From contig NZ_CP119809.1 in NCBI RefSeq assembly GCF_029338395.1, forward strand, positions 1,612,001-1,676,000: a stretch of 64,000 bases of DNA, given 5' to 3'. Shown one piece after another: positions 46,544 through 60,135 of the stretch (position 1 is its first letter; each line of letters begins with the position of its first letter). Source of the DNA: Halorussus caseinilyticus. GTDB taxonomy: Archaea > Halobacteriota > Halobacteria > Halobacteriales > Haladaptataceae. Made by a program: the position numbers and the translations under genes. The notes under the pieces were generated by a model, which ran no database searches, had not been told where the DNA came from, and worked only from the letters and a program-made list of their open reading frames with translations.

Positions 46544-46876
46544 CTACACCGAGAAGTCGGTCCGGGCCTCGGCCGTGTCGCCGGTCGCGTTCAGTTCCGC
46601 GACCACGGTGTAGTCGCCGGGTTCGGGGTCGTCCCACTCGCCGGGGAACGTCTCGCCGTCCCCGGCGTCGATGGTCTCGGTCTGCATCATCTGGGCGAAC
46701 ATCTGGCCGTCGCTGGCCCGCCAGACTTCCTCGCCGTCTTCGAGGACGGCGAAGTCGGCGGTCAGCGCGCTCCGGAGCTGAACGTCCTCCGGGGAGTCGC
46801 CGACGTTCTCGACGGTGTACTCGAAGACCACGCGGTCGGACTCGACGGATGCGGTGACGGAGCTTTGAAGCGTCAT
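46544..46876 (-). CDS. BsuPI-like (intracellular proteinase inhibitor domain) protein
   Basis: 110 residues. An Ig-like beta-sandwich layout, TLQSSVTASVESDRVVFEYTVENVGDSPEDVQLRS, a central GEEVWRASDGQMFAQMMQTETIDAGDGETF, and ending EPGDYTVVAELNATGDTAEA. The strand pattern V.F.YTV.N and VWR.S.G..F.Q....I..G (cf. W..S.....F.Q) is the hallmark of the BsuPI family, named after the Bacillus subtilisin inhibitor. No signal peptide, so it should be cytosolic. It lies 48 bases after the first subtilase gene in the same direction, at the end of a ten-subtilase array, so a role in restraining those enzymes is a natural idea but unproven. Confidence 0.8.
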   Translation of the reverse strand: MTLQSSVTASVESDRVVFEYTVENVGDSPEDVQLRSALTADFAVLEDGEEVWRASDGQMFAQMMQTETIDAGDGETFPGEWDDPEPGDYTVVAELNATGDTAEARTDFSV

Positions 46877-46924
46877 GGTTTCTACTGCATCGCGTGTCCC
46901 TGAAAACTTTTCGTGCGAGCGACT

Positions 46925-48064
46925 TCAGCAGTCGACCGCGGCCTGCACGTCCACCAGACCGCAACCGGTCGCGTCGTCCGAGAGACCGATGTCTTCCGCC
47001 GTCTCGCAGAGGATGTTCCACGTCTTGAAGCGCGTGTAGTTGAACGGGTCGCCCATCAGCAACGCCGCCGCACCGCTGACGAACGGTGCCGCCATCGAGG
47101 TGCCCGAGAGCGTCTTGTAACCGCCGCCGACGTACGTCGAGTAGATGTCGGAACCGGGCGCGGCGATGTTGATTTCCGGACCGGTCGAGGAGAATCCCGA
47201 GAGGTTGTCGCTGGAGTCGATTGAACTCACGGCGAGGGTCTCGGGATAGGCGGCGGGGTAGCCCACGCAGTCGGTACACGGCCCGGAGTTGCCCGCCGCC
47301 GCGACCATCAGGACGCCCTTGCTGTCGGCGTACTTCACCGCGTCTTTGACCGCGCTGGACGCGCTTCCGCCGAGACTCAGGTTGGCGATGTCCCAACCTT
47401 GGTCGGCGACGTACTCGATGCCCGCCGCGATGTCCGAGTACGACCCGCCGCCGTTGCTGTCCAGCACCTTCACGGCGTGGATGGTCGCCTCGGGCGCGAC
47501 CCCGAGGACGCCTTGGCTGTTATCGACGGCCCCGACGATTCCGGCGCAGTGGGTGCCGTGGCCGTTGTCGTCGCCCCACGAGTAGGTACACTCGGCGGAC
47601 CACGAGCTACACGAGACGGCGTACGCGCCAGTGCCGAGGTTGGCTTCGAGGTCGGGGTGGTTGCCGTCGATGCCCGTGTCGATGATGGCTACGTCGGTTC
47701 CCTTCCCCTTCGCGCAGGGGTGGGCCTCCGGTGCGTCGATGCGGTCGATACCCCACGAGATGTTCTGGGCGAGCGCGTGCATCCGGCCGTTCTGCTCGAC
47801 GTAGCGCACGTCGGGACGCTTGCCGAGTTCGCTCGCGGCCCGTCTCGGGACTCGGACCGTCACGACGGGGAGCGAGTCGAAGTCGCGTACCACCTCGCCC
47901 GCGGCGTCGAGAGCGGCCTTTCGGCCGCTCTCGGCGGCGACCCCGACGTTGACTACGACGGGGGTGGAGTCGGCCGAGACGAGACCGGTCGCTCCGAGTC
48001 CGGCGAGTGCGCCGCCGGTCGCTTGCAGGACGCTTCGTCGGTCGATGGGGGTGTGTCGTGTCAT
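46925..48064 (-). CDS. S8 subtilase 1 (last gene of the array)
   Basis: 379 residues. Tat signal IDRRSVLQATGGALAGLG. Propeptide of I9 type (about 35-100, ending VRYVEQNGRMHAL). Catalytic Asp 129 (AIIDTGIDGNHPDL), His 169 (GHGTHCAG), oxyanion Asn 259 (AAAGNSGPCTDC), Ser 323 (SGTSMAAPF). The Asp-His interval carries SCSSWSAECTY. No C-terminal extension of the halolysin type. Its start is 33 bases after the stop of subtilase 2 and lacks an AT-rich box, so it is probably transcribed with subtilase 2 and followed by the BsuPI gene. Confidence 0.93.
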   Translation of the reverse strand: MTRHTPIDRRSVLQATGGALAGLGATGLVSADSTPVVVNVGVAAESGRKAALDAAGEVVRDFDSLPVVTVRVPRRAASELGKRPDVRYVEQNGRMHALAQNISWGIDRIDAPEAHPCAKGKGTDVAIIDTGIDGNHPDLEANLGTGAYAVSCSSWSAECTYSWGDDNGHGTHCAGIVGAVDNSQGVLGVAPEATIHAVKVLDSNGGGSYSDIAAGIEYVADQGWDIANLSLGGSASSAVKDAVKYADSKGVLMVAAAGNSGPCTDCVGYPAAYPETLAVSSIDSSDNLSGFSSTGPEINIAAPGSDIYSTYVGGGYKTLSGTSMAAPFVSGAAALLMGDPFNYTRFKTWNILCETAEDIGLSDDATGCGLVDVQAAVDC

Positions 48065-48097
48065 GGTTCTTCCGTCGATGTCGTTCGGTCGGTCGAT

Positions 48098-49234
48098 TCA
48101 CGCCGCGGCCGCCACGTCGAGCAGACCGTAACCCTGTTCGTTGCTCGACAGGCCGAGGTCCTCGGCGGTGTCCCGGAGGCGGGTGCGAGCGCCGTCGCTC
48201 GTGTACCCCTGCGCGCGGAGGATGCCAGCGCCGCCCGAGACGTGCGCGGCGGCGTAGGAAGTCCCCGAGAGCGACTGGTAGCCGTCGCTCGCGTCGCAGG
48301 ACTCGAAGTAGATGTCGGTGCCGGGCGCGGCGAGTTCGACTTCCGGTCCGGTCGCCGAGAAGTACGCGAGCGAGTCGTTCCGGTTGGTCGCGCTGACGGC
48401 TATCACTTCGCCGAACTTGGCGGGATAGCTCACGCAGTCGGTGCAAGAGCCGCTGTTTCCGACCGCACCGACGAGGGTGACGCCCTCGTCGTCGGCGTAC
48501 CTGATTGCGTCGTACAGCGTGCTGGAGTAACTGCCGCCGAAACTCATGTTCGCCACGTCCCAACCCTTGTCCGCGACCGTTTCGAGACCCGCCGCGATGT
48601 CCGAGTACGACCCCGACCCGTCAGCGCCGAAGACTTTGACCGCGTGGAGGGTCGCGCCGGGTGCCACGCCGACGGTCCCCTCGTAGTTATCCACCGCCCC
48701 GACGAGAGTCGCTAGCTGCGTCCCGTGACCGCTGTCGTCGTCCCACGGTACCTTACAGCCGTTGCAGTAGCTCTCGTCCGAACAGGGGACGACGGCGACT
48801 CCCTCGCCGAGGTTCTGCTCGAGGTCCGACCGGTCGCTGTCGATGCCGGTGTCCACGATTGCGATGTCCGCGCCGGTGCCGTCGGCAGAGGTCCGGTCGG
48901 CGTCTACCCGGTCTACGCTCCACTGTAGGGTCTGGGCGAACGTTTCCATCCGGCCGTTCTCCTCGACGTAGCGCACGTCGGCGCGCTTGCCGAGTGTGGT
49001 CGCGGCCCGCTTGGGCGCGCGCATCGTCAGTGCGTCGAGGGAATCGAACTCGCGGACGACTTCGCCCGCGGCGTCGAGCGCGGCCCTCCGCCCGCTCTCG
49101 GCGGCGAACCCGACGTTGACTTCGACCGACCGGCCGGGGGTCGCCGCCGCGAGACCGGTCGCGGTAGCCCCGACGAGCGAACCGCCGGTCGCACGGAGGA
49201 CGGCACGTCTGGAGAGGTTGGTTTCGAACTGCAT
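48098..49234 (-). CDS. S8 subtilase 2
   Basis: 378 residues. Tat signal LSRRAVLRATGGSLVGA. Asp 128 (AIVDTGIDSDRSDL, HPDL replaced by RSDL), His 170 (GHGTQLATLV, where most subtilases have GHGTHxAG), Asn 260 (GNSGSCTDC), Ser 326 (SGTSYAAAHVSG). The Asp-His interval has PCSDESYCNGCKVPW. The changes around Asp and His are unusual, but all four active-site residues remain. An AT-rich box (ctattaaaattg) sits at 49258-49269. Likely secreted protease. Confidence 0.9.
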   Translation of the reverse strand: MQFETNLSRRAVLRATGGSLVGATATGLAAATPGRSVEVNVGFAAESGRRAALDAAGEVVREFDSLDALTMRAPKRAATTLGKRADVRYVEENGRMETFAQTLQWSVDRVDADRTSADGTGADIAIVDTGIDSDRSDLEQNLGEGVAVVPCSDESYCNGCKVPWDDDSGHGTQLATLVGAVDNYEGTVGVAPGATLHAVKVFGADGSGSYSDIAAGLETVADKGWDVANMSFGGSYSSTLYDAIRYADDEGVTLVGAVGNSGSCTDCVSYPAKFGEVIAVSATNRNDSLAYFSATGPEVELAAPGTDIYFESCDASDGYQSLSGTSYAAAHVSGGAGILRAQGYTSDGARTRLRDTAEDLGLSSNEQGYGLLDVAAAA

Positions 49235-49257
49235 GTGGCGAAGTTACCGAATTGCCG

Positions 49258-49269
49258 CTATTAAAATTG
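49258..49269 (-). promoter_or_regulatory. TATA-like box, subtilase 2
   Basis: ctattaaaattg on the plus strand, 24-35 bases before the ATG at 49234; leaderless-type spacing. Confidence 0.6.
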
Positions 49270-49318
49270 TAAGCTAGCTATCTTAAATTCGAGAGGAAGA
49301 CGGCGGAGAGCGACGACC

Positions 49319-50455
49319 TTAGTCGTCGCTCGAATCGAGTCCCAGCGCCGCGGCCGCATCGACCAGTCCGTAGCCCTGTTCGTCGCTCGGCAGGCCGAGG
49401 TCCTCAGCGGTGTCGCGCAGGCGGGTGCGAGCGCCGGTGTTGGTGTATCCCGCGCCCATCAGGAGGGCGAGGACGCCCGAGGCGTGGGCCGTCGCCATCG
49501 ACGTGCCCGAGAGAGTGATGCACGAGCCGTCGGGGTCCACCGTGGTGATGTTGGTGCCGGGCGCGACGACTTCGACTTCAGGACCCTGACTGGAGAACGA
49601 CGCGAGACCGTCGTTCTCGTTGGTTGCGCCCACGGCGACGACTTCGGAGTAAGCGGCGGGGTAACCCACGCAGTCGGTGCAGGGACCGCTTCCGCCCGCC
49701 GCGCCCACGAGGACGACGCCGTTGTTCTGGGCGTACTGGCAAGCGTCCCGCAGGACCGACGACCCGGAACTGCCGCCGAGACTCATGTTCGCCACGTCCC
49801 ACCCCTGATTCGCGGTGTACTCGACGCCCGCGGCGATGTCGGAGTACGACCCCGCGCCGTAGTCGTCCAGCACCTTCACGGCGTGGAGGGTCGCGTCGGG
49901 CGCGATGCCGGTGGTGCAGTCGCAGGTCTCGCTCGCGCCGATGACCGCCGCGACGTTCGCCCCGTGGCCGTTGTCGTCGTCCCACGGCGCACAGCAACTC
50001 GAAGTGCAGTCTACGAACGCCTTGCCGGCACCGACGTTCGGCAGACAAGAACTGTTACACGGCAGGCCGGTGTCGATGATAGCCACGTCCACGCCGTCGC
50101 CGGTGTACCCGTTGATGTTGGTCACGTCGGCGTCGATGCGGTCGTAGCCCCACGTCGTCGAGAGGGCGTGTGCGGTGCCGTCGTGTTCGACGTAGCGCAC
50201 GCCACCGCGGTCGGCCAGCGCAGTCGCGGCGCGTTTCGGGAGTCGGAGGGTCGCGGCGTCGAAGTCGAACTCGCGGACGACTTCGCTTGCGGCCTCGCGC
50301 GCGGCGGCGCGACCCGCCTCGGAGTCGAACCCGACGTTGACTCGTACCACGTCGTCGGGGTCGGCCGAGGCGAGACCACCTGCGCCGACAGCGAGGAGCG
50401 AACCGCCGGTCGTCTTCAGCACGGTGCGTCGGGAGACAGCCTGTTCGGGGAGCAT
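49319..50455 (-). CDS. S8 subtilase 3, oxyanion-hole Asn replaced by Gly
   Basis: 378 residues. Tat signal VSRRTVLKTTGGSLLAVG. Asp 128 (AIIDTGLPCNSSCLPN, so the usual GIDxxHPDL is lost), His 164 (NGHGANVAAV), Ser 319 (SGTSMATAHASG). The oxyanion-hole position reads GAAGGSGPCTDC: Gly 255 where all nine sisters have Asn. The Asp-His interval has DCTSSCCAPW and the region after His an extra CDC. It may be a weak or non-catalytic copy (decoy, binding protein or pseudoenzyme). Confidence 0.9.
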   Translation of the reverse strand: MLPEQAVSRRTVLKTTGGSLLAVGAGGLASADPDDVVRVNVGFDSEAGRAAAREAASEVVREFDFDAATLRLPKRAATALADRGGVRYVEHDGTAHALSTTWGYDRIDADVTNINGYTGDGVDVAIIDTGLPCNSSCLPNVGAGKAFVDCTSSCCAPWDDDNGHGANVAAVIGASETCDCTTGIAPDATLHAVKVLDDYGAGSYSDIAAGVEYTANQGWDVANMSLGGSSGSSVLRDACQYAQNNGVVLVGAAGGSGPCTDCVGYPAAYSEVVAVGATNENDGLASFSSQGPEVEVVAPGTNITTVDPDGSCITLSGTSMATAHASGVLALLMGAGYTNTGARTRLRDTAEDLGLPSDEQGYGLVDAAAALGLDSSDD

Positions 50456-50480
50456 CAGTATACTGCAAAGTGTTCTTAGG

Positions 50481-50494
50481 ATAAAATAATTTTG
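50481..50494 (-). promoter_or_regulatory. TATA-like box, subtilase 3
   Basis: ataaaataattttg on the plus strand, 26-39 bases before the ATG at 50455. Confidence 0.6.
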
Positions 50495-50639
50495 TACTTA
50501 ATATAAATGAAACAATATTCTGAAGGTTCAACGCTGTCGCTATCCGACTGGCGCGAGAAAAGCGGGGTCGGGCGGACTTACGCCAGCGAGCGACCCACGC
50601 CGGGTCTCTCGCCGACTGGTAAGATGGCAGTTGTCGCCG

Positions 50640-51764
50640 TTACAGCGCGCCCACGTCGAGCAGGCCAGCGCCGGACTCGTTGTCCGCGAGACCGATGTTC
50701 TCGGCGGTGCTCAGGAGGCGGTTCTTCGTCTGGGAGTTGGAGTAGCCCTGCGCACGGAGGATGCCAGCGGCACCGGCGACGTGCGGACAGGCCATCGAGG
50801 TACCCGAGAGCGTCTCGTAACCGCCACCGACGTACGTCGAGTAGATGTCGGAACCGGGCGCGGCGATGTCCACTTCCGGACCGGTCGAGGAGAAACTCGA
50901 CAGGTCGTCGTTGGAGTTGGTCGAGGAGACGGCGATGGTCTCGGGGTAGGCGGCGGGGTAGCCCACGCAGTCGGTACAGGGACCGGAGTTCCCGGCGGCC
51001 GCGACGAGCGTGACGCCTCGGCTGTCGGCGTACTGCACCGCGTCTCGGACCGAGCTGGACGCACTGCCACCGAGCGAGAGCGAACCAACGTCCCAGCCCT
51101 GGTCGGCGACGTACTCGATACCCGCCGCGATGTCGGAGTACGACCCACCGCCTCTGCTACCGAGGACCTTCACGGCGTGGAGCGTGATTTCCGACCCGAC
51201 GCCGACGACGCCCTCGTAGTTGTCGACTGCGCCAGCGATGCCAGCACAGTGAGTACCGTGGCCGTTGTCGTCTCCCCAGCCGTAGGTACACTCGGCGGAG
51301 TAGGAGCTACACTGGGTAGCGTACGCGCCAGCGCCGAGGTTGGCTTCGAGGTCGGGGTGGTTGCCGTCGATACCCGTGTCGATGATTGCTACGTCTGCAC
51401 CGTTACCCTCGGCGGACTGAACGTCGGCGTCCACACGGTCGACGCCCCACGGCAGGGTCTGGGCGAGGGCCTGCATCTGGCCGTTCTCTTCGACGTAGCG
51501 GACGTTCGGACTCTGTTCGAGACCCGTGACCGCCTTCTTGGGCGCACGGATGGTGACGATGTCGAGCGAGTTGAACTTCCGGACCACGTCGCTCGCGGCG
51601 TCGAGCGCCTTCTGTCGTCCCTTCTCGGACTTGAACCCGACGTTGACCTCTACCGTGTCGTCGGGCTTGGCCGCCGCGAGACTGGTCGCGCTCAGGGCGG
51701 CGAGCGAACCACCGGCGGTTTGCAGAACTTTACGACGGGAAACGCCGTTGTTTTCTTCGAGCAT
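50640..51764 (-). CDS. S8 subtilase 4
   Basis: 374 residues. Tat signal VSRRKVLQTAGGSLAAL. I9-type propeptide ending YVEENGQMQAL. Asp 129 (DTGIDGNHPDL), His 169 (GHGTHCAG), Asn 259 (GNSGPCTDC), Ser 323 (SGTSMACPHVAG). The Asp-His interval QCSSYSAECTY is closest to that of subtilase 1. Complete triad, predicted secreted protease without C-terminal extension; stops soon after LLDVGAL. Confidence 0.94.
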   Translation of the reverse strand: MLEENNGVSRRKVLQTAGGSLAALSATSLAAAKPDDTVEVNVGFKSEKGRQKALDAASDVVRKFNSLDIVTIRAPKKAVTGLEQSPNVRYVEENGQMQALAQTLPWGVDRVDADVQSAEGNGADVAIIDTGIDGNHPDLEANLGAGAYATQCSSYSAECTYGWGDDNGHGTHCAGIAGAVDNYEGVVGVGSEITLHAVKVLGSRGGGSYSDIAAGIEYVADQGWDVGSLSLGGSASSSVRDAVQYADSRGVTLVAAAGNSGPCTDCVGYPAAYPETIAVSSTNSNDDLSSFSSTGPEVDIAAPGSDIYSTYVGGGYETLSGTSMACPHVAGAAGILRAQGYSNSQTKNRLLSTAENIGLADNESGAGLLDVGAL

Positions 51765-51791
51765 GGCAGTTGAACGAAGATGTTGGCCAAC

Positions 51792-51805
51792 AATAAAGTT
51801 TTATT
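51792..51805 (-). promoter_or_regulatory. TATA-like box, subtilase 4
   Basis: aataaagttttatt on the plus strand, 28-41 bases before the ATG at 51764. The rest of the 51765-52046 spacer is AT-rich and gene-free. Confidence 0.6.
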
Positions 51806-52046
51806 CTAGAACTAGATGTTAGGAACAATATCTATATATGGGATACGAAATATGTTTTCGTTGCTTCAGAGAATGTGTATCATAACGATGCAATTAATTT
51901 GGTTGCTTAAAGAATTATTTGGCAGTGTTTATTCGCAAATATTGACAGCTATTTTCGTGGAGGGGATTGGTAACGTAAAACACTGCCGCTGGTCGGAGTC
52001 TCGATGCGGGCGTCGAAAGAAAGAGTCGGTTCCGAAGGGGGACGGA

Positions 52047-53240
52047 TTACGTGCTGTCGCTAGAGTCGTAACCGAGCGCGGCCGCGGCGTCCAATAGGCC
52101 AGCGCCGGACTCGTTGCTGGCGAGACCGATGTTCTCGGCGGAGTTCGCCAGCGTCGAACGGATGTTACTGCCGGTCGTACCGTTCGAGGCGAGTTGGCCC
52201 GCGACACCGGCGACGTGCGGGGTCGCCATCGAGGTCCCCGAGTAGGTGTCGTAGCCGCCGTTCGCGACCGACGAGTAGATGTCGGTACCGGGCGCGGCGA
52301 TGTCCACTTCCGGCCCCGTACTGGAGAAGTCCGAGAGGCTGTCGTCGCTGGCGGTCGAACTCACGGCCATGACCTCGCTGTAGGCGGCGGGGTAGCCCAC
52401 ACAGTCGGTACACGGTCCGGAGTTACCCGCGGCCGCGACGAGGAACACGCCGTTGTTCGTCGCGTACTGCACCGCGTCCTTGAGCGCCGAGGAGCCAGAG
52501 CTACCGCCGAGGCTCATCGACCCAACGTCCCAGCCTTGGTCGGCGACGTACTCGACACCCGCCGCGATGTCCGAGAACGAACCGCTCCCACAGCCGTCGA
52601 GGACCTTCACCGCGTGGAGGGTCACGTCGGGCGCGGCACCGACGACTCCCTGACTGTTGTTGTCACCTGCGGCGATACCGGCACAGTGGGTGCCGTGGTT
52701 GTTGTCGTCGGTCCACGAGTAGTTACACGTGTTGTTGGCCTTCTTCGCGCCGAAACGACAGCCACCCTTGGTCTTACACGTGGCGAACGCCTTCCCTGCG
52801 CCGAGTTTGTCGGTCAGGTCGGGGTGGTCGTCGTCGATACCCGTGTCGAGGATTGCCACGTCCGCGCCGCTTCCGAGTTCGCCGTTGGCGTGGAGAACGT
52901 CGGAGTCCACGCGTTCCTGACCCCACGGCAGACTCTCGGCGAGCGCGTGCATCGTGCCGTTCTGCTCGACGTAGCGCACGTTCGGGTTGTTCTCCAGACC
53001 CTTGGCCGCCTGCTTCGAGGCGCGCATCGTCACGACATCGATGGAGTTGAAGTCACGGACCACTTCGTCGGCCGCGCTGAGCGCCTTCTGACGCCCGCTC
53101 TCGGACTTGAACCCGACGTTGACCTCCACCGTGTCGCCGGGCTTTGCCGCCGCGAGACCGCTCGCGGCCGCAGTCGCCACCGACGCACCGGCCGCTTTCA
53201 GAACACTCCGCCTCGACATACCATTGTCATTACCTAACAT
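52047..53240 (-). CDS. S8 subtilase 5
   Basis: 397 residues from the ATG at 53240 (MLGNDNGMSRRSVLKAAGAS); the frame is open further up but the promoter box fixes this start. Asp 132 (AILDTGIDDDHPDL), His 182 (NNHGTHCAG), Asn 273 (GNSGPCTDC), Ser 337 (SGTSMATPHVAG). The Asp-His interval is long, with three Cys (TCKTKGGCRFGAKKANNTCNY). Nearly identical to subtilase 6 over most of its length: a recent tandem duplicate. Confidence 0.94.
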   Translation of the reverse strand: MLGNDNGMSRRSVLKAAGASVATAAASGLAAAKPGDTVEVNVGFKSESGRQKALSAADEVVRDFNSIDVVTMRASKQAAKGLENNPNVRYVEQNGTMHALAESLPWGQERVDSDVLHANGELGSGADVAILDTGIDDDHPDLTDKLGAGKAFATCKTKGGCRFGAKKANNTCNYSWTDDNNHGTHCAGIAAGDNNSQGVVGAAPDVTLHAVKVLDGCGSGSFSDIAAGVEYVADQGWDVGSMSLGGSSGSSALKDAVQYATNNGVFLVAAAGNSGPCTDCVGYPAAYSEVMAVSSTASDDSLSDFSSTGPEVDIAAPGTDIYSSVANGGYDTYSGTSMATPHVAGVAGQLASNGTTGSNIRSTLANSAENIGLASNESGAGLLDAAAALGYDSSDST

Positions 53241-53264
53241 TGCACTCGATAGCAACCACCACGT

Positions 53265-53275
53265 GCATAAAATAC
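53265..53275 (-). promoter_or_regulatory. TATA-like box, subtilase 5
   Basis: gcataaaatac on the plus strand, 25-35 bases before the ATG at 53240. Confidence 0.6.
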
Positions 53276-53464
53276 TTTCTTTTTTATCGTTAAAATAATA
53301 AACATCCAACAATTGCTATGTAGAAATAGTTAGGAAAAATAATTGTAGCGGCCGGAGCGTCCCGAAACGAGACCTGACCTGACTGGTTTAGACGAACGCG
53401 AACCGGGACGCCGACCGAAGGGAAAGAGTGACAGACACTGACACCGAAAAAACCGGGAAAGGGT

Positions 53465-54661
53465 TTACGTGCTGTCGCTGGAGTCGTAGCCGAGTGCGGC
53501 CGCGGCGTCGAGCAGACCGGCACCGGACTCGTTGCTGGCGAGACCGATGTTCTCGGCGGAGTTCGCCAGCGTCGAACGGATGTTACTGCCGGTCGTACCG
53601 TTCGAGGCGAGTTGGCCCGCGACACCGGCGACGTGCGGGGTCGCCATCGAGGTCCCCGAGTAGGTGTCGTAGCCGCCGTTCGCGACCGACGAGTAGATGT
53701 CGGTACCGGGCGCGGCGATGTCGACCTCGGGACCTTGCGACGAGAAGTCCGAGAGGCTGTCGTCGCTGGCGGTCGAACTCACGGCCATGACCTCGCTGTA
53801 GGCGGCGGGGTAGCCCACACAGTCGGTACACGGTCCGGAGTTACCCGCGGCCGCGACGAGGAACACGCCGTTGTTCGTCGCGTACTGCACCGCGTCCTTG
53901 AGCGCCGAGGAGCCGGAGCTGGCACCGAGCGACATCGACCCAACGTCCCAGCCTTGGTCGGCGACGTACTCGACACCCGCCGCGATGTCCGAGAACGAAC
54001 CGCTCCCACACTTGTCGAGGACCTTCACCGCGTGGAGGGTCACGTCGGGCGCGGCACCGACGACTCCCTGACTGTTGTTGTCGCCTGCGGCGATACCGGC
54101 ACAGTGTGTGCCGTGGTTGTTGTCGTCGGTCCACGAGTAGTTACACGTGTTGTTCGCGGGTTTCGCACCGTAGCGACAGCCACCGCTCGTGTTGCAGGAG
54201 ACGAACGCCTTCCCTGCGCCGAGTTTGTCGGTCAGGTCGGGGTGGTCGTCGTCGATACCCGTGTCGAGGATGGCCACGTCCGCACCCGCGCCGAGTTCGC
54301 CGTTGGCGTGGAGAACGTCGGAGTCCACGCGCTCCTGACCCCACGGCAGACTCTCGGCGAGCGCGTGCATCGTGCCGTTCTGCTCGACGTAGCGCACGTT
54401 CGGGTTGTTCTCCAATCCGGAGACGGCTTTCTTGGCCGCGCGCATCGTCACGACATCGATGGAGTTGAAGTCACGGACCACTTCGTCGGCCGCGCTGAGC
54501 GCCTTCTGACGCCCGCTTTCGGACTTGAACCCGACGTTGACCTCCACCGTGTCGTCGGGTTTCGCCGCCGCGAGACCACTGCCTGCCGCCGCAGTCGCCA
54601 CCGACGCACCGGCCATCTTGAGAACGTTCCGCCTCGAAACACCATTGTCGTTATCTAGCAT
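53465..54661 (-). CDS. S8 subtilase 6
   Basis: 398 residues. Tat signal VSRRNVLKMAGAS. Asp 133, His 183, Asn 274 and Ser 338 in the same motifs as subtilase 5. Differences from subtilase 5 cluster in the Asp-His interval (SCNTSGGCRYGAKPANNTCNY), a few signal residues and a patch reading FSSQGPEVD where subtilase 5 has FSSTGPEVD. That patch is, at DNA level, identical over 36 bases to subtilase 9, pointing to gene conversion. Complete active site. Confidence 0.94.
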   Translation of the reverse strand: MLDNDNGVSRRNVLKMAGASVATAAAGSGLAAAKPDDTVEVNVGFKSESGRQKALSAADEVVRDFNSIDVVTMRAAKKAVSGLENNPNVRYVEQNGTMHALAESLPWGQERVDSDVLHANGELGAGADVAILDTGIDDDHPDLTDKLGAGKAFVSCNTSGGCRYGAKPANNTCNYSWTDDNNHGTHCAGIAAGDNNSQGVVGAAPDVTLHAVKVLDKCGSGSFSDIAAGVEYVADQGWDVGSMSLGASSGSSALKDAVQYATNNGVFLVAAAGNSGPCTDCVGYPAAYSEVMAVSSTASDDSLSDFSSQGPEVDIAAPGTDIYSSVANGGYDTYSGTSMATPHVAGVAGQLASNGTTGSNIRSTLANSAENIGLASNESGAGLLDAAAALGYDSSDST

Positions 54662-55008
54662 GGCAATTAATCCATAATGCCGGTTACTAATAAGTTTTTC
54701 TTATTTTGCTGTGAAAATAACTCTCTGAGGCCGTATTTTCTTACGATTCCGATTTCATCTGACGAAGTATTAAAAAGAGGTGGAGTAGTACGAGCCGCCT
54801 CGGTCGGAATCGGCGACGGCGCGCGAGACGAGCGCCGACTTCCTCGAAGTCGGCGCTCGGTGACGGGACTCGGCAGTCGCTTCGAGGCGACTGGTCGAGA
54901 AGCGACGGAAACAGAAACGCGGCGAAGCGAAAGCGCAACGAAACGGGAACGCGGCGAAAACGAGGCAGGGATGGTAGGTGATGACGGAGGCGAACCCTCG
55001 TTACGCGC
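54662..55008. promoter_or_regulatory. Spacer with subtilase 6 promoter and subtilase 7 hairpin
   Basis: The AT-rich box actaataagttttt at 54686-54699 lies 25-38 bases before the subtilase 6 ATG. A perfect hairpin (cgagcgccgacttc, loop ctc) at 54829-54859 follows subtilase 7 on the minus strand and leads to a minus-strand T run near 54770, a good terminator. Bases 54880-54990 are rich in gcgaaa/gaaac motifs. No gene seen. Confidence 0.6.
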
Positions 55009-56160
55009 TTAGTTGTCGCTGGAGTCGTAGTTGAGTGCGGCGGCCACGTCGAGGAGACCAGCGCCGGACTCGTTGTCCGCGAGACCGATGTTCTCCGCGG
55101 AACTCTTGATGGTGTCGCGGGCCTTCGTGTTGCTGGCACCGTTGGCCATCAGTTGACCGCCAGCACCGGCGACGTGCGGGGTCGCCATCGAGGTACCCGA
55201 GAAGGTGTCGTAGCCACCGACGACAGTCGAGTAGATGCTGGAACCGGGTGCGGCGATTTCGACCTGCGGACCCGTCGAGGAGAACCCGGAGAGATTGTCG
55301 CTAGAGTCGGTCGAACTCACGGCCATGACCTCGCTGTAGGCGGCGGGGTAGCCCACGCAGTCGGTACAGGGACCCGAATTTCCGGCCGCGCCGACGAGGA
55401 ACACGCCGTTGTTGTAGGCGTAGGTACACGCGCTCTTCAGCGTCTGACCGCCCGAGGACGCGCCGAGAGACATCGAACCAACGTCCCAGCCCTGATTGGC
55501 GACGTACTCGATACCGGCCGCCACGTCCGAGAGCGTCCCGCTACCGCTGTTGTCCAGCACCTTCACGGCGTGGAGGGTCGCGTCGGTGGAGACGCCGACG
55601 ACGCCCCGACTGTTGTCCACCGCGTCGGCGATACCGGCGCAGTGGGTCCCGTGGTCGTTGTCGTCCGACCAGTTGTAGTTACAACCCTTGCCGCGGCACT
55701 TGACGAACGCCTTGCCCGACCCGACGTTGGCCTGTAGGTCGGGGTGGTCGCCGTCGATTCCCGTGTCGATGATGGCGATGTCCGCACCAGCGCCGGTGTC
55801 GCCGTTGGCGTGAGCGACTTCGGCGTCCACGCGGTCGATACCCCACGGCAGGGTCTGGGCCAGCGCGTGAACTTCGCTGTTCTCCTCGACGAATCGCACG
55901 TCTGCGCGGTTCTCCAGACCCGAGACGGCCTGTTTCGCGGCGCGAATCGTCACGATGTCCAGCGAGTCGAACTTTCGAACCACGTCGCTCGCGGCGTCGA
56001 GCGCCGCCTTCTGACCGCTGGTGGATTTGAACCCGACGTTGACCTCCACCGTGTCGCCGGGCTTTGCCGCCGCCAGTCCGCTTCCCGCGGCGGTTGCCAC
56101 GGATGCACCGGCCATCTTGAGAACGTTCCGCCTCGACACACCATTGTCGTTACCTAACAT
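55009..56160 (-). CDS. S8 subtilase 7 (shortest Asp-His interval of its subgroup)
   Basis: 383 residues. Tat signal VSRRNVLKMAGAS. Asp 132 (AIIDTGIDGDHPDL), His 170 (NDHGTHCAG), Asn 261 (GNSGPCTDC), Ser 324 (SGTSMATPHVAG). The Asp-His interval is reduced to KCRGKGCNYNW. An extra Cys in LKSACTYAYN near residue 245 is absent from sisters other than number 3 (RDACQYAQ). Complete triad. Ends LLDVAAALNYDSSDN like the rest. Confidence 0.94.
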   Translation of the reverse strand: MLGNDNGVSRRNVLKMAGASVATAAGSGLAAAKPGDTVEVNVGFKSTSGQKAALDAASDVVRKFDSLDIVTIRAAKQAVSGLENRADVRFVEENSEVHALAQTLPWGIDRVDAEVAHANGDTGAGADIAIIDTGIDGDHPDLQANVGSGKAFVKCRGKGCNYNWSDDNDHGTHCAGIADAVDNSRGVVGVSTDATLHAVKVLDNSGSGTLSDVAAGIEYVANQGWDVGSMSLGASSGGQTLKSACTYAYNNGVFLVGAAGNSGPCTDCVGYPAAYSEVMAVSSTDSSDNLSGFSSTGPQVEIAAPGSSIYSTVVGGYDTFSGTSMATPHVAGAGGQLMANGASNTKARDTIKSSAENIGLADNESGAGLLDVAAALNYDSSDN

Positions 56161-56184
56161 GGCAAATTAAATAAGTTGTTGGAG

Positions 56185-56198
56185 AATAATAAATTTTT
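56185..56198 (-). promoter_or_regulatory. TATA-like box, subtilase 7
   Basis: aataataaattttt on the plus strand, 25-38 bases before the ATG at 56160. Confidence 0.6.
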
Positions 56199-56269
56199 CT
56201 TCAGATATATTACTATAAAATTACAAGTGCATTTTGGTGGAAAATTTCGCTGGTCGGAGGGTTGCGACG

Positions 56270-57466
56270 CTACGTGCTGTCCGACGAGTCGAGTCCGAGG
56301 GCGGCGGCCGTATCGACCAGTCCGTACCCCTGTTCGTCGTCCGAGAGACCGATGTCCTCCGCGGTGGCGTGGAGGCGGTCGCGGGCCTCGGTGTTGGTGT
56401 AACCGTTCGCCATCAACTGCCCGCCGGTCCCCGAGACGTGCGGACAGGCCATCGACGTGCCGCCGTAGTAGGCGTACCCGCCGTAGACCGTCGAGTAGAT
56501 GTCGGTACCGGGCGCGGCGAGTTCGACTTCGGGACCCTGCGACGAGAAGTTCGCCAACTGGTCGTTCTCCGTGGTCGCGCTGACCGCGACGACCTCGGGT
56601 TCGGCCGCGGGATAGCTAACGCAGTCGGTGCAGGGACCGTCGTTCCCGGCCGCCGCGACCAACAGGACGCCCTTCCCGTAGGCGTACTCTACGGCGTCCT
56701 CGACGGCTTGGGACTTGCCGCCGCCGAGACTCAGCGACCCAACGTCCCACCCTTGGTCGGCGGTGTACTCGATGCCCGCCGCGACATCCGAGAACGTCCC
56801 ACTCCCGCAGTAGTCCAGTACCTTCACGGCGTGGAGGGTGGCCTCCGTCGAGACGCCGACGACCCCCTGCGTGTTGTCCACGGCGTCGGCGATACCGGCG
56901 CAGTGGGTCCCGTGGTTGTTGTCGTCCGACCACGCGTAGTTACAGGGGTTGTCGTTCGTTCTGCTTCCGTACCGACACCCGTTCGGCCGACCTTGCAGTG
57001 GTCGGCAGTCCACGAAGGCTTTGCCCGCCCCGACGTTGGCCTGTAGGTCGGGGTGGTCGCCGTCGATTCCGGTGTCGATGACGGCGATGTCCGCGCCAGC
57101 GCCCGTCTCGCCGTTCGCGTGGGCTACCTCGGCGTCGATGCGGTCGATACCCCACGGCAGGGTCTGACTCAGGGCCTCCATGGTCCCGTTCTCCTCGACG
57201 TACCGAATCCCGGCGCTCCGTTCGAGTCCGGCGACGGCCCGTTTGGGAAGGCGGATGGTCAGAGCGTCGAACGCGAAGGTCCGAACCACCTCGGTCGCGG
57301 CGTCGAACGCCACTTTCCGGCCGCTCTCGGACTCGAACCCGACGTTGACTTCGACCGTATCGTCGGGTTTCGCGGCCGCGAGACCCCCTGCCCCGATAGT
57401 TGCGACGGACGCGCCCGCCGTTTTGAGTACGTTCCTCCTTGAGACACCGTTGTCATTATAGGACAT
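56270..57466 (-). CDS. S8 subtilase 8
   Basis: 398 residues from the ATG at 57466 (MSYNDNGVSRRNVLKTAGAS). Asp 131 (AVIDTGIDGDHPDL), His 185 (NNHGTHCAG), Asn 275 (GNDGPCTDC), Ser 338 in GGTSMACPHVSG, where the first residue is Gly rather than the usual Ser. Longest Asp-His interval of the set (DCRPLQGRPNGCRYGSRTNDNPCNY). Propeptide ends YVEENGTMEALS. Complete triad; predicted secreted. Confidence 0.94.
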   Translation of the reverse strand: MSYNDNGVSRRNVLKTAGASVATIGAGGLAAAKPDDTVEVNVGFESESGRKVAFDAATEVVRTFAFDALTIRLPKRAVAGLERSAGIRYVEENGTMEALSQTLPWGIDRIDAEVAHANGETGAGADIAVIDTGIDGDHPDLQANVGAGKAFVDCRPLQGRPNGCRYGSRTNDNPCNYAWSDDNNHGTHCAGIADAVDNTQGVVGVSTEATLHAVKVLDYCGSGTFSDVAAGIEYTADQGWDVGSLSLGGGKSQAVEDAVEYAYGKGVLLVAAAGNDGPCTDCVSYPAAEPEVVAVSATTENDQLANFSSQGPEVELAAPGTDIYSTVYGGYAYYGGTSMACPHVSGTGGQLMANGYTNTEARDRLHATAEDIGLSDDEQGYGLVDTAAALGLDSSDST

Positions 57467-57488
57467 GACGTTCGAATGAGCAATGGAA

Positions 57489-57505
57489 CTAATAATCAAA
57501 TTTCT
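57489..57505 (-). promoter_or_regulatory. TATA-like box, subtilase 8
   Basis: aactaataatcaaattt on the plus strand, 23-39 bases before the ATG at 57466. Confidence 0.6.
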
Positions 57506-57607
57506 ACCTATTTACTTAAAATCTACGCGCGCGAGACTCGTACCGGTTCGTCGTGAGACAGTCGAACGACGCCGAGAGCGCGGCCGAAAAAAGCTACTTC
57601 GGAGTCG

Positions 57608-58804
57608 TTACGTGCTGTCGCTGGAGTCGAGTCCGAGCGCCGCCGCCACGTCGAGCAGACCAGCGCCGGACTCGTTGTCCGAGAGGTCGATGTTCTCGGC
57701 CGTGGACTTCAGTTGGTCGCGGGCCTCGCCGTTGGTGTAACCGTTCGCCATGAGTTGACCGCCCGCGCCCGCGACGTGCGGGCAAGCCATCGACGTACCC
57801 GAGAAGGTGTCGTACCCGCCGGGCACCGTCGAGTAGATGTCGGTGCCGGGCGCGGCGATTTCGACCTCGGGACCTTGCGACGAGAAGTCCGAGAGGTCGT
57901 CGTTCGAGTCGGTCGAACTCACGGCCATGACCTCGCTGTAGGCGGCGGGGTAGCCCACACAGTCGGTGCAGGAACCGGAGTTACCGGCCGCGGCGACCAG
58001 CAGGACGCCGTTGCTCTGGGCGTACTCGACGGCGCTCTTGAGCGTGGACGACCCGGAACTGCCGCCGAGGGACATCGACGCGACATCCCAGCCCTGATTG
58101 GCGACGTACTCGATACCCGCCGCGATGTCCGAGAACGACCCACTGCCCGAACAGTCCAGCACCTTCACGGCGTGGAGGGTCGCTTCGGTCGAAACACCGA
58201 CGACGCCCCGACTGTTGTCCACCGCGTCGGCGATGCCAGCGCAGTGGGTGCCGTGGTCGTTGTCGTCCGACCACGTGTAGTTACACGCGTTGCTGTTGCC
58301 CGAGTACGAGCAGTCGCCGAAGTACCCGCCGTTGCCACAGTTGACGAACGCCTCGCCCGACCCCAAGTTGCCCTGTAAGTCGGGGTGGTCGTCGTCGATT
58401 CCGGTGTCGATGATGGCGATGTCCGCGCCAGCGCCCGTCTCTCCGTTCGCGTGGGCGACTTCGGCGTCCACGCGGTCGATACCCCACGGCAGGGTCTGGG
58501 CCAGCGCGTGCATCGTCCCGTTCTCCTCGACGAACTCGACGTTCGGATTGTTTTCGAGACCGCTCGCCGCCTTCTTGGGCATCTTGGCGGTCACGATGTC
58601 GAGCGAGTCGAACTCGCGGACGACTTCGGTCGCGGCGTCGAGCGTCTGCTTGCGACCCTTCTCGGACTTGAACCCGACGTTGACTTCGACCGTATCGTCG
58701 GGTTTCGCGGCCGCGAGACCACTCCCCGCCGCGGCAGTCGCCACGGACGCACCGACGCCTTTCAGAACGTTTCGCCTCGACACACCACTGCTATTTTGGA
58801 ACAT
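57608..58804 (-). CDS. S8 subtilase 9
   Basis: 398 residues. Tat signal VSRRNVLKGVGAS. Asp 133 (AIIDTGIDDDHPDL), His 184 (NDHGTHCAG), Asn 275 (GNSGSCTDC), Ser 338 (SGTSMACPHVAG). Asp-His interval NCGNGGYFGDCSYSGNSNACNY, shared in outline only with subtilase 10, so 9 and 10 form a pair. Complete triad; predicted secreted. Confidence 0.94.
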   Translation of the reverse strand: MFQNSSGVSRRNVLKGVGASVATAAAGSGLAAAKPDDTVEVNVGFKSEKGRKQTLDAATEVVREFDSLDIVTAKMPKKAASGLENNPNVEFVEENGTMHALAQTLPWGIDRVDAEVAHANGETGAGADIAIIDTGIDDDHPDLQGNLGSGEAFVNCGNGGYFGDCSYSGNSNACNYTWSDDNDHGTHCAGIADAVDNSRGVVGVSTEATLHAVKVLDCSGSGSFSDIAAGIEYVANQGWDVASMSLGGSSGSSTLKSAVEYAQSNGVLLVAAAGNSGSCTDCVGYPAAYSEVMAVSSTDSNDDLSDFSSQGPEVEIAAPGTDIYSTVPGGYDTFSGTSMACPHVAGAGGQLMANGYTNGEARDQLKSTAENIDLSDNESGAGLLDVAAALGLDSSDST

Positions 58805-58831
58805 AGCAATTTAACTATTATCGAATAACAG

Positions 58832-58841
58832 ATTAAAATTA
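58832..58841 (-). promoter_or_regulatory. TATA-like box, subtilase 9
   Basis: attaaaatta on the plus strand, 28-37 bases before the ATG at 58804. Confidence 0.6.
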
Positions 58842-58941
58842 TGACCTAATTGTTTAAACCCATAATTTTAATTTTAAAAGACTTTGGGAAAGAAGGGTGA
58901 TTGCTCGAAAAGAAACCGGGAACCGGTGAGTCGGGACGCGC

Positions 58942-60135
58942 TCAGTTGTCGCTTGAGTCGAGTCCGAGCGCCGCCGCCACGTCGAGCAGACCGTTGCCCT
59001 GTTCGTTGCTCGACAGACCGATGTCCTCGGCCGTGCTTTCGAGCGCGTTTCGAGCCTCGGAGTTGGACTTGCCGCTGGCCATGAGTTGGCCGCCCGCGCC
59101 CGCGACGTGCGGGCAGGCCATCGACGTACCGTCGAAGTTGGCGTATCCGCTCGGCACCGTCGAGTAGACGCCCTTTCCGGGCGCGGCGATGTCCACCTCG
59201 GGACCCTGCGCGGAGAAGTCCGCAAGCGAGTCGCTCTCGGTCGTCGCGGAGACCGCGACGACCTCTTCGTACTTCGCGGGGTACTTCACACAGTCGGTAC
59301 ATGGACCGGGATTACCCGCCGCGACCACCACGAGGACGCCGCTGTCGTTGGCGTACTGCACCGCGTCCTTGAGCGTCTGAGAACTCGAGTCGCCGCCGAG
59401 CGAGAGGCTAGCCACGTCCCAGCCTTGGTCGGCGACGTACTCGACGCCCGCCGCGATGTCCGAGAACGACCCGCTCCCGGCACAGTCCAGTACTTTGACC
59501 GCGTGGAGGGTCGCTTCGGTCGAGACGCCGACGACGCCTTCGCCGTTGTTGACCGCGTTGGCAGTCCCGGCGCAGTGGGTGCCGTGGTCGTTGTCGTCCG
59601 ACCACGACCGGTTACAGGAGTTGCTGTTACCCGACCACGCGCAGTTGCCGAAGTACCCGCCGTTACCGCAGGAGACGAACGACTCGCCCGCACCGAGGTT
59701 GCCCTGTAGGTCGGGGTGGTCGTCGTCGATTCCCGTGTCTACGATAGCGATGTCCGCGCCAGCGCCCGTCTCGCCGTTCGCGTGAGCGACTTCGGCGTCC
59801 ACGCGGTCGATACCCCACGGTAGGGTCTGGGCGAGCGCTTCCATCGTCCCGTTCTGTTCGACGTAGCGGATGTTGGGACTCTTCTCGAGTGCCGTCGCCG
59901 CCTTCTTCGGCAAGCGGAGCGTAACCGCGTCGATGGAGTTGAACTCCCGAACCGTCTCGCTGGCCTTGTCCAGTGCCGCTTTTCGCCCGCGTTCGGACGC
60001 GAATCCGACGTTGACTTCCACCGTGTCGTCGGGTTTCGCCGCCGCGAGACCGCTTCCGACGCTTGCGGTCGCCACGGACGCACCGACGCCTTTCAGAACG
60101 TTTCGCCTCGACACACCTTTGTCATTATGTGCCAT
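58942..60135 (-). CDS. S8 subtilase 10 (first gene of the array)
   Basis: 397 residues. Tat signal VSRRNVLKGVGAS. Asp 133 (AIVDTGIDDDHPDL), His 184 (NDHGTHCAG), Asn 275 (GNPGPCTDC), Ser 338 in DGTSMACPHVAG (Asp in place of the first Ser). GPCTDCVKYPAKY differs from the usual CVGYPAAY. Asp-His interval SCGNGGYFGNCAWSGNSNSCNRSW. Complete triad. Predicted secreted protease. Confidence 0.94.
   Translation of the reverse strand: MAHNDKGVSRRNVLKGVGASVATASVGSGLAAAKPDDTVEVNVGFASERGRKAALDKASETVREFNSIDAVTLRLPKKAATALEKSPNIRYVEQNGTMEALAQTLPWGIDRVDAEVAHANGETGAGADIAIVDTGIDDDHPDLQGNLGAGESFVSCGNGGYFGNCAWSGNSNSCNRSWSDDNDHGTHCAGTANAVNNGEGVVGVSTEATLHAVKVLDCAGSGSFSDIAAGVEYVADQGWDVASLSLGGDSSSQTLKDAVQYANDSGVLVVVAAGNPGPCTDCVKYPAKYEEVVAVSATTESDSLADFSAQGPEVDIAAPGKGVYSTVPSGYANFDGTSMACPHVAGAGGQLMASGKSNSEARNALESTAEDIGLSSNEQGNGLLDVAAALGLDSSDN

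What the first reader, a model, noticed from the sequence alone, without database searches (positions are those of the whole stretch)
46544..48064. Subtilase array ends in a BsuPI-type inhibitor gene
The 110-residue product at 46544-46876 has the strand pattern of the BsuPI family, named for the Bacillus subtilisin inhibitor. It follows subtilase 1 by 48 bases, same strand, with no promoter box seen between. It has no signal peptide, so it would act inside the cell, a place where prematurely folded Tat-exported proteases are dangerous. A protease-inhibitor (toxin-immunity-like) module is plausible.
Basis: partly seen in the sequence, partly recalled or inferred. Interest (0 to 1): 0.8.

Follow-up and report, generated by a model that had tools for sequence, protein, structure and literature searches.

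The report
Protease inhibitor beside exported-protease gene array
A salt-loving archaeon carries one small gene for a protein of a known bacterial protease-inhibitor family directly after a row of ten exported-protease genes, and the pairing recurs across many salt-loving archaea, which suggests, but does not yet prove, that the inhibitor protects the cell from its own proteases before they are exported.

Summary
In detail: 46544-46876(-) encodes a 110-aa PF12690 protein (E 2.4e-23). It is the genome's only copy and lies 48 bp after subtilase 1, at the 3' end of ten same-strand subtilases. Its AlphaFold model matches B. subtilis inhibitor IPI (3isy) at Z 16.2; the next hit is 9.9. The MF[AT]Q loop, IPI's proposed reactive site, is conserved.

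The link to subtilases is real. A subtilase lies directly upstream, same strand, in 24 of 28 genomes of the family and 29 of 80 other BsuPI-positive Halobacteriales loci, plus two distant archaeal loci. None lies on the opposite strand within the stretches read. In an even sample, 9 of 38 genomes are linked against 0.03 expected. The one paper found on the family states that no such proximity exists in complete genomes, so this corrects the record. Nearly all linked subtilases carry Tat signals; no haloarchaeal BsuPI shows a signal peptide.

Two corrections: BsuPI has its own conserved promoter-like element 25-36 bp upstream, so an operon is not shown; and linkage is lost in many genomes, three of which have BsuPI but no detected subtilase.

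Best reading: a cytoplasmic guard against prematurely active Tat-exported subtilases. Inhibition was not tested; cofolding was uninformative.

The parts
46544..46876 (-). BsuPI-family (PF12690) protein, 110 aa, no signal peptide, single copy in the genome
   Evidence: Pfam E 2.4e-23; own-genome search; model to 3isy Z 16.2
46685..46702 (-). codons M59-F60-A61-Q62-M63-M64, the conserved MF[AT]Q wedge loop, aligned with the proposed reactive site of B. subtilis IPI (M63-F64-T65-Q66-A67-F68)
   Evidence: alignment with 3isy; column conservation in 81 sequences outside the family; site proposed in PMC3901451
46901..46912 (-). GAAAAGTTTTCA, BRE/TATA-like element at -36 to -25 from the BsuPI start codon
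   Evidence: conserved at this distance in family f1 with and without an upstream subtilase; AT-rich peak at the same distance in other families
46925..48064 (-). subtilase 1 (PF00082), Tat signal at residues 9-13, 48 nt upstream of BsuPI
   Evidence: Pfam E 2.8e-60; Tat motif
48098..49234 (-). subtilase 2, 33 nt upstream of subtilase 1
49319..50455 (-). subtilase 3 (oxyanion Asn replaced by Gly)
50640..51764 (-). subtilase 4
52047..53240 (-). subtilase 5
   Evidence: start chosen at the ATG
53465..54661 (-). subtilase 6
55009..56160 (-). subtilase 7
56270..57466 (-). subtilase 8
   Evidence: start chosen at the ATG
57608..58804 (-). subtilase 9
58942..60135 (-). subtilase 10

Best explanation
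The gene encodes a cytoplasmic subtilisin inhibitor of the BsuPI/IPI family. The neighbouring subtilases carry Tat signals, so they are expected to fold before export and can mature inside the cell. The inhibitor, made from its own promoter and lacking an export signal, would cover the active site of any subtilase that activates too early, through the conserved MF[AT]Q wedge, and stay behind when proteases are exported. One inhibitor would serve the whole array because the ten catalytic domains are alike. Shown here: family, fold, wedge motif, conserved neighbourhood, Tat signals, lack of a signal on BsuPI, the promoter-like element. Published: IPI inhibits Isp1 with Ki about 1 nM; halolysin trapped in the cell becomes active and kills. 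Inferred: that this protein binds and inhibits these subtilases, that the wedge does it, and that protection is the purpose.
For: PF12690 E 2.4e-23 and 3isy Z 16.2 against 9.9 for the next hit. Subtilase directly upstream, same strand, in 24/28 genomes of the family and 29/80 loci elsewhere in the order, none on the opposite strand; even sample 9 of 38 against 0.027 expected, P 2e-20 without correction for relatedness. The pair occurs in several unrelated gene contexts and in two distant archaeal loci (L155, L156). BsuPI-positive haloarchaea hold more subtilases (mean 5.2 against 1.0). RR-type Tat motif in 47 of 52 linked subtilase frames; no signal on BsuPI. F60 99% and Q62 88% conserved in 81 sequences outside the family. 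Literature: PMC3901451, PMC6085418.
Against: No inhibition or binding was tested; the cofolding model was poor (pLDDT 61). MEROPS removed the family because inhibition was not certain, and casein relieved it (PMC3901451). Linkage is rare in family f4 (3 of 25 upstream). Three BsuPI-positive haloarchaea have no PF00082 match. The two distant archaeal pairs have Sec-like signals on the protease, so Tat folding cannot be the only reason for pairing. The subtilases already carry propeptides.
Confidence: 0.6

Rival explanations
1. BsuPI is a folding or export partner of the Tat subtilases: it holds the folded proenzyme and delays self-cleavage until the Tat machinery takes it, acting as a dedicated chaperone rather than a competitive inhibitor.
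For: Same linkage, Tat and compartment data. Rigden et al. considered that IPI may bind subtilisin without classical inhibition (PMC3901451).
Against: The most conserved loop corresponds to IPI's proposed active-site wedge. The two distant archaeal pairs use Sec-like signals.
Confidence: 0.17
2. BsuPI mainly acts on other intracellular targets, and the neighbourhood is an old gene order kept by descent.
For: BsuPI stays in place between DUF2797 and the downstream genes when the subtilase is missing; three genomes keep BsuPI without a detected subtilase; it has its own promoter-like element.
Against: Pairs occur in several unrelated contexts; subtilases cluster only on the same strand; subtilase number and BsuPI presence go together. 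The trees suggest that pairs moved together between families, though only one protein of each pair rejects the alternative.
Confidence: 0.18
3. A toxin-immunity module: the exported subtilases attack rival archaea and BsuPI protects kin.
For: Halolysins take part in antagonism between haloarchaea by cutting precursor proteins (PMC12893001).
Against: BsuPI has no export signal, so it would not meet proteases acting outside. In that published system the protease alone did not kill.
Confidence: 0.04

Closest known systems
Bacillus subtilis intracellular proteinase inhibitor IPI (BsuPI, PF12690, former MEROPS I22; PDB 3isy)
   Same: Family score over cut-off, whole-domain fold (Z 16.2, rmsd 1.6 over 110 residues), the MF-x-Q wedge motif, and no signal peptide in the short form.
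   Different: 22% identity. IPI's reported target Isp1 is itself intracellular and its gene is reported not to be near ipi; here the candidate targets are Tat-exported and adjacent.
Tat-exported halolysins such as SptA of Natrinema (PF00082)
   Same: Subtilase domain with a Tat signal, able to mature inside the cell (SptA, PMC6085418).
   Different: The window's enzymes are about 375-400 aa without the C-terminal extension of SptA, lie in a tandem array, and have a linked BsuPI gene.
N-terminal domain of metalloprotease AsaP1 (PDB 2x3a)
   Same: BsuPI-like fold as part of a protease (Z 9.3, 22% identity).
   Different: Covalently part of an unrelated zinc protease; similar Z to many Ig-like domains, so possibly only a shared fold.

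Membership tests
BsuPI (PF12690) | profile match over the curated cut-off | tested here: met
   82.5 bits against 22.9
BsuPI (PF12690) | IPI variant of the Ig-like fold | tested here: met
   3isy first in Foldseek (E 8e-8, TM 0.91) and VIA-align (Z 16.2)
BsuPI (PF12690) | conserved wedge loop with hydrophobic-hydrophobic-x-Gln | tested here: met
   M59 F60 A61 Q62 in the window; conserved in relatives
subtilisin inhibitor (MEROPS I22 sense) | inhibits a subtilisin in vitro | not testable with these tools
   published for IPI only; cofolding of subtilase 1 with BsuPI was uninformative
cytoplasmic inhibitor | no export signal | tested here: met
   N-termini begin at the first strand, no hydrophobic leader, by reading about 100 translated starts; no signal predictor was run
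operon with subtilase | co-transcription | not testable with these tools
   short gap and same strand, but a conserved promoter-like element precedes BsuPI
toxin-immunity system | protease toxic to non-immune neighbours | not testable with these tools
   no data

The most novel reading that the evidence does not exclude
Haloarchaea use a dedicated two-gene module, a Tat-exported subtilase plus a cytoplasmic BsuPI inhibitor, which expands on the protease side into arrays of ten or more under one inhibitor and moves between families as a unit.
Probability: 0.4. Interest if true: 0.72.

Novelty: new variant of a known kind. Interest (0 to 1): 0.6.

Why it matters
Whether IPI/BsuPI proteins are true inhibitors has been left open since MEROPS removed the family, and the structure paper argued against a functional link because no genome placed the gene near a subtilisin (PMC3901451). 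The larger genome sample here shows a widespread link in haloarchaea. That gives natural enzyme-inhibitor pairs to test, and offers an answer to how Tat-exporting cells keep prefolded subtilases from digesting the cytoplasm.

Tried and rejected
Cofolding: mature subtilase 1, the intergenic codons and BsuPI happen to share a frame, so the read-through stretch was folded with 20 rows; pLDDT 61, pTM 0.62, no interface can be read. Viral contigs: no relative found. Plasmids: one distant Natronorubrum relative only. NCBIfam: no family for BsuPI. Literature: PF12690 occurs in one held paper; no paper linking BsuPI to halolysins was found, but subscription journals are mostly missing. A fused subtilase-BsuPI frame was suspected in L023 and dropped, because the two domains are in different frames. 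Bacterial neighbourhoods were not surveyed.

Full report
What was checked. It passes PF12690 at 82.5 bits, E 2.4e-23, and nothing else in the 4.39-Mb genome does. It sits at the 3' end of ten PF00082 genes, all on the minus strand. The genus is Halorussus or very near: genome G012, in the same genus as the window, has a contig of the same length as the H. aquaticus chromosome NZ_CP100400.1.

Fold. phmmer finds IPI (3isy) at E 2.5e-5. An AlphaFold model from seven sequences (pLDDT 84.8, pTM 0.76) has 3isy as first hit: Foldseek E 8e-8, TM 0.91; VIA-align Z 16.2, rmsd 1.6 over 110 residues, next hit Z 9.9. The loop M59-F60-A61-Q62 aligns with M-F-T-Q of IPI, the stretch that docking placed in the subtilisin cleft with Gln as P1 (PMC3901451). 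In 81 sequences from outside the family, W52 is invariant, F60 99% and Q62 88%. The model is least certain in this loop (blocks at 71-74).

Neighbourhood. All 28 genomes of the family have one BsuPI, and 220 of 392 sampled Halobacteriales have a match. A profile built from the window's subtilases was run on the loci. In the family, a subtilase lies directly upstream on the same strand in 24 of 28 genomes, often with an array behind it. In 80 loci from other families of the order the count is 29, by family code: f2 2/4, f3 6/16, f4 3/25, f5 11/20, f7 3/5, f8 2/6, f9 0/2, f39 2/2; one more (L091) has subtilases downstream. No subtilase lay on the opposite strand in the stretches read. Two of five loci from distant archaea of the phylum have one upstream (L155, L156) and one downstream (L157). 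These 80 loci were chosen to cover genera, so for chance I used the even phylum sample: 38 BsuPI-positive haloarchaea outside the family, 9 with a subtilase within 1 kb upstream, 0.027 expected from subtilase number and genome size, Poisson P 2e-20. That P ignores relatedness.

Independence. The commonest setting is DUF2797 (divergent), subtilase(s), BsuPI, a sugar-nucleotide epimerase-like gene, Trm56; in unlinked genomes BsuPI often sits in the same place without the subtilase. So much of the linkage is inherited. But pairs also occur in other settings: L065/L066, L072, L073, L075, L083, L132, L155, L156. On a poorly resolved BsuPI tree at least 19 changes between linked and unlinked are needed. 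The f2 pair groups with f5 in both trees, and L132 (f7) with the long f3 pairs. Tests that would exclude the family grouping reject it for one protein each (f2/f5: subtilase p 0.01, BsuPI 0.11; f7: BsuPI 0.02, subtilase 0.35), and the groups were named after seeing the trees. Joint transfer is therefore suggested, not shown.

Presence and absence. BsuPI-positive haloarchaea outside the family hold 5.2 subtilases on average and 35 of 38 have at least one; 24 BsuPI-negative genomes hold 1.0 and 14 have one (Mann-Whitney 3e-7, Fisher 0.003). Genome size and kinship are not corrected for. Three positive genomes (G192, G241, G256) have none.

Compartments. Of 52 linked subtilase frames, 47 show an RR motif by pattern, nearly all in the [ST]RRxVL Tat setting; a few matched frames are broken genes where the motif is spurious. 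The two distant archaeal enzymes instead start with Sec-like hydrophobic leaders. Translated BsuPI starts show no leader. No signal predictor was available.

Promoter. GAAAAGTTTTCA at -36 to -25 is nearly fixed in position across the family, in linked and unlinked genomes; other families have an AT peak at the same distance (0.73-0.74 AT against about 0.3 around it). This fits a BRE/TATA pair for a leaderless transcript. Subtilases 2 to 10 have their own AT-rich boxes near -33; subtilase 1, 33 nt behind subtilase 2, has none. So BsuPI is probably transcribed on its own, possibly also by read-through.

Prior knowledge. Rigden et al. 2013 state that in no complete genome is the IPI homologue close to a subtilisin gene (PMC3901451). 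H. aquaticus NZ_CP100400.1, a complete chromosome, has the two genes about 40 nt apart (L031), so the statement no longer holds. SptA with a mutated Tat signal accumulates active in Hfx. volcanii and the cells die (PMC6085418).

Conclusion. Family, fold and linkage are established by computation. Function as a guard against premature Tat subtilases is the best-supported inference (0.6). Inhibition, specificity within the array, and co-transcription remain untested.

Noticed in passing
window 49319-50455 (subtilase 3); loci L002, L005, L012, L014-L016, L018, L020: The oxyanion-hole Asn of subtilases (AAGN) is Gly (AAGGSG) in this paralogue and in the BsuPI-linked subtilase of several relatives, with Asp, His and Ser motifs kept in the intact ones: altered or lost activity is possible.
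   Followed up: partly
L014 and L020, subtilase next to BsuPI: The linked subtilase is split between two frames (frameshift, or sequencing error), suggesting decay of array members while BsuPI stays intact.
   Followed up: no
G192, G241, G256 (L127, L069, L067): Haloarchaea with a BsuPI gene but no PF00082 match; the inhibitor may have another target there.
   Followed up: no
window 46925-60135: Ten tandem subtilases, most preceded by an AT-rich box near -33 from the start, so largely separate promoters rather than one long operon.
   Followed up: partly
PDB 2x3a residues 23-151 (hit of the BsuPI model): The N-terminal part of metalloprotease AsaP1 resembles BsuPI (Z 9.3, 22% identity); it may be a related inhibitory domain or only a common Ig-like fold.
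   Followed up: no
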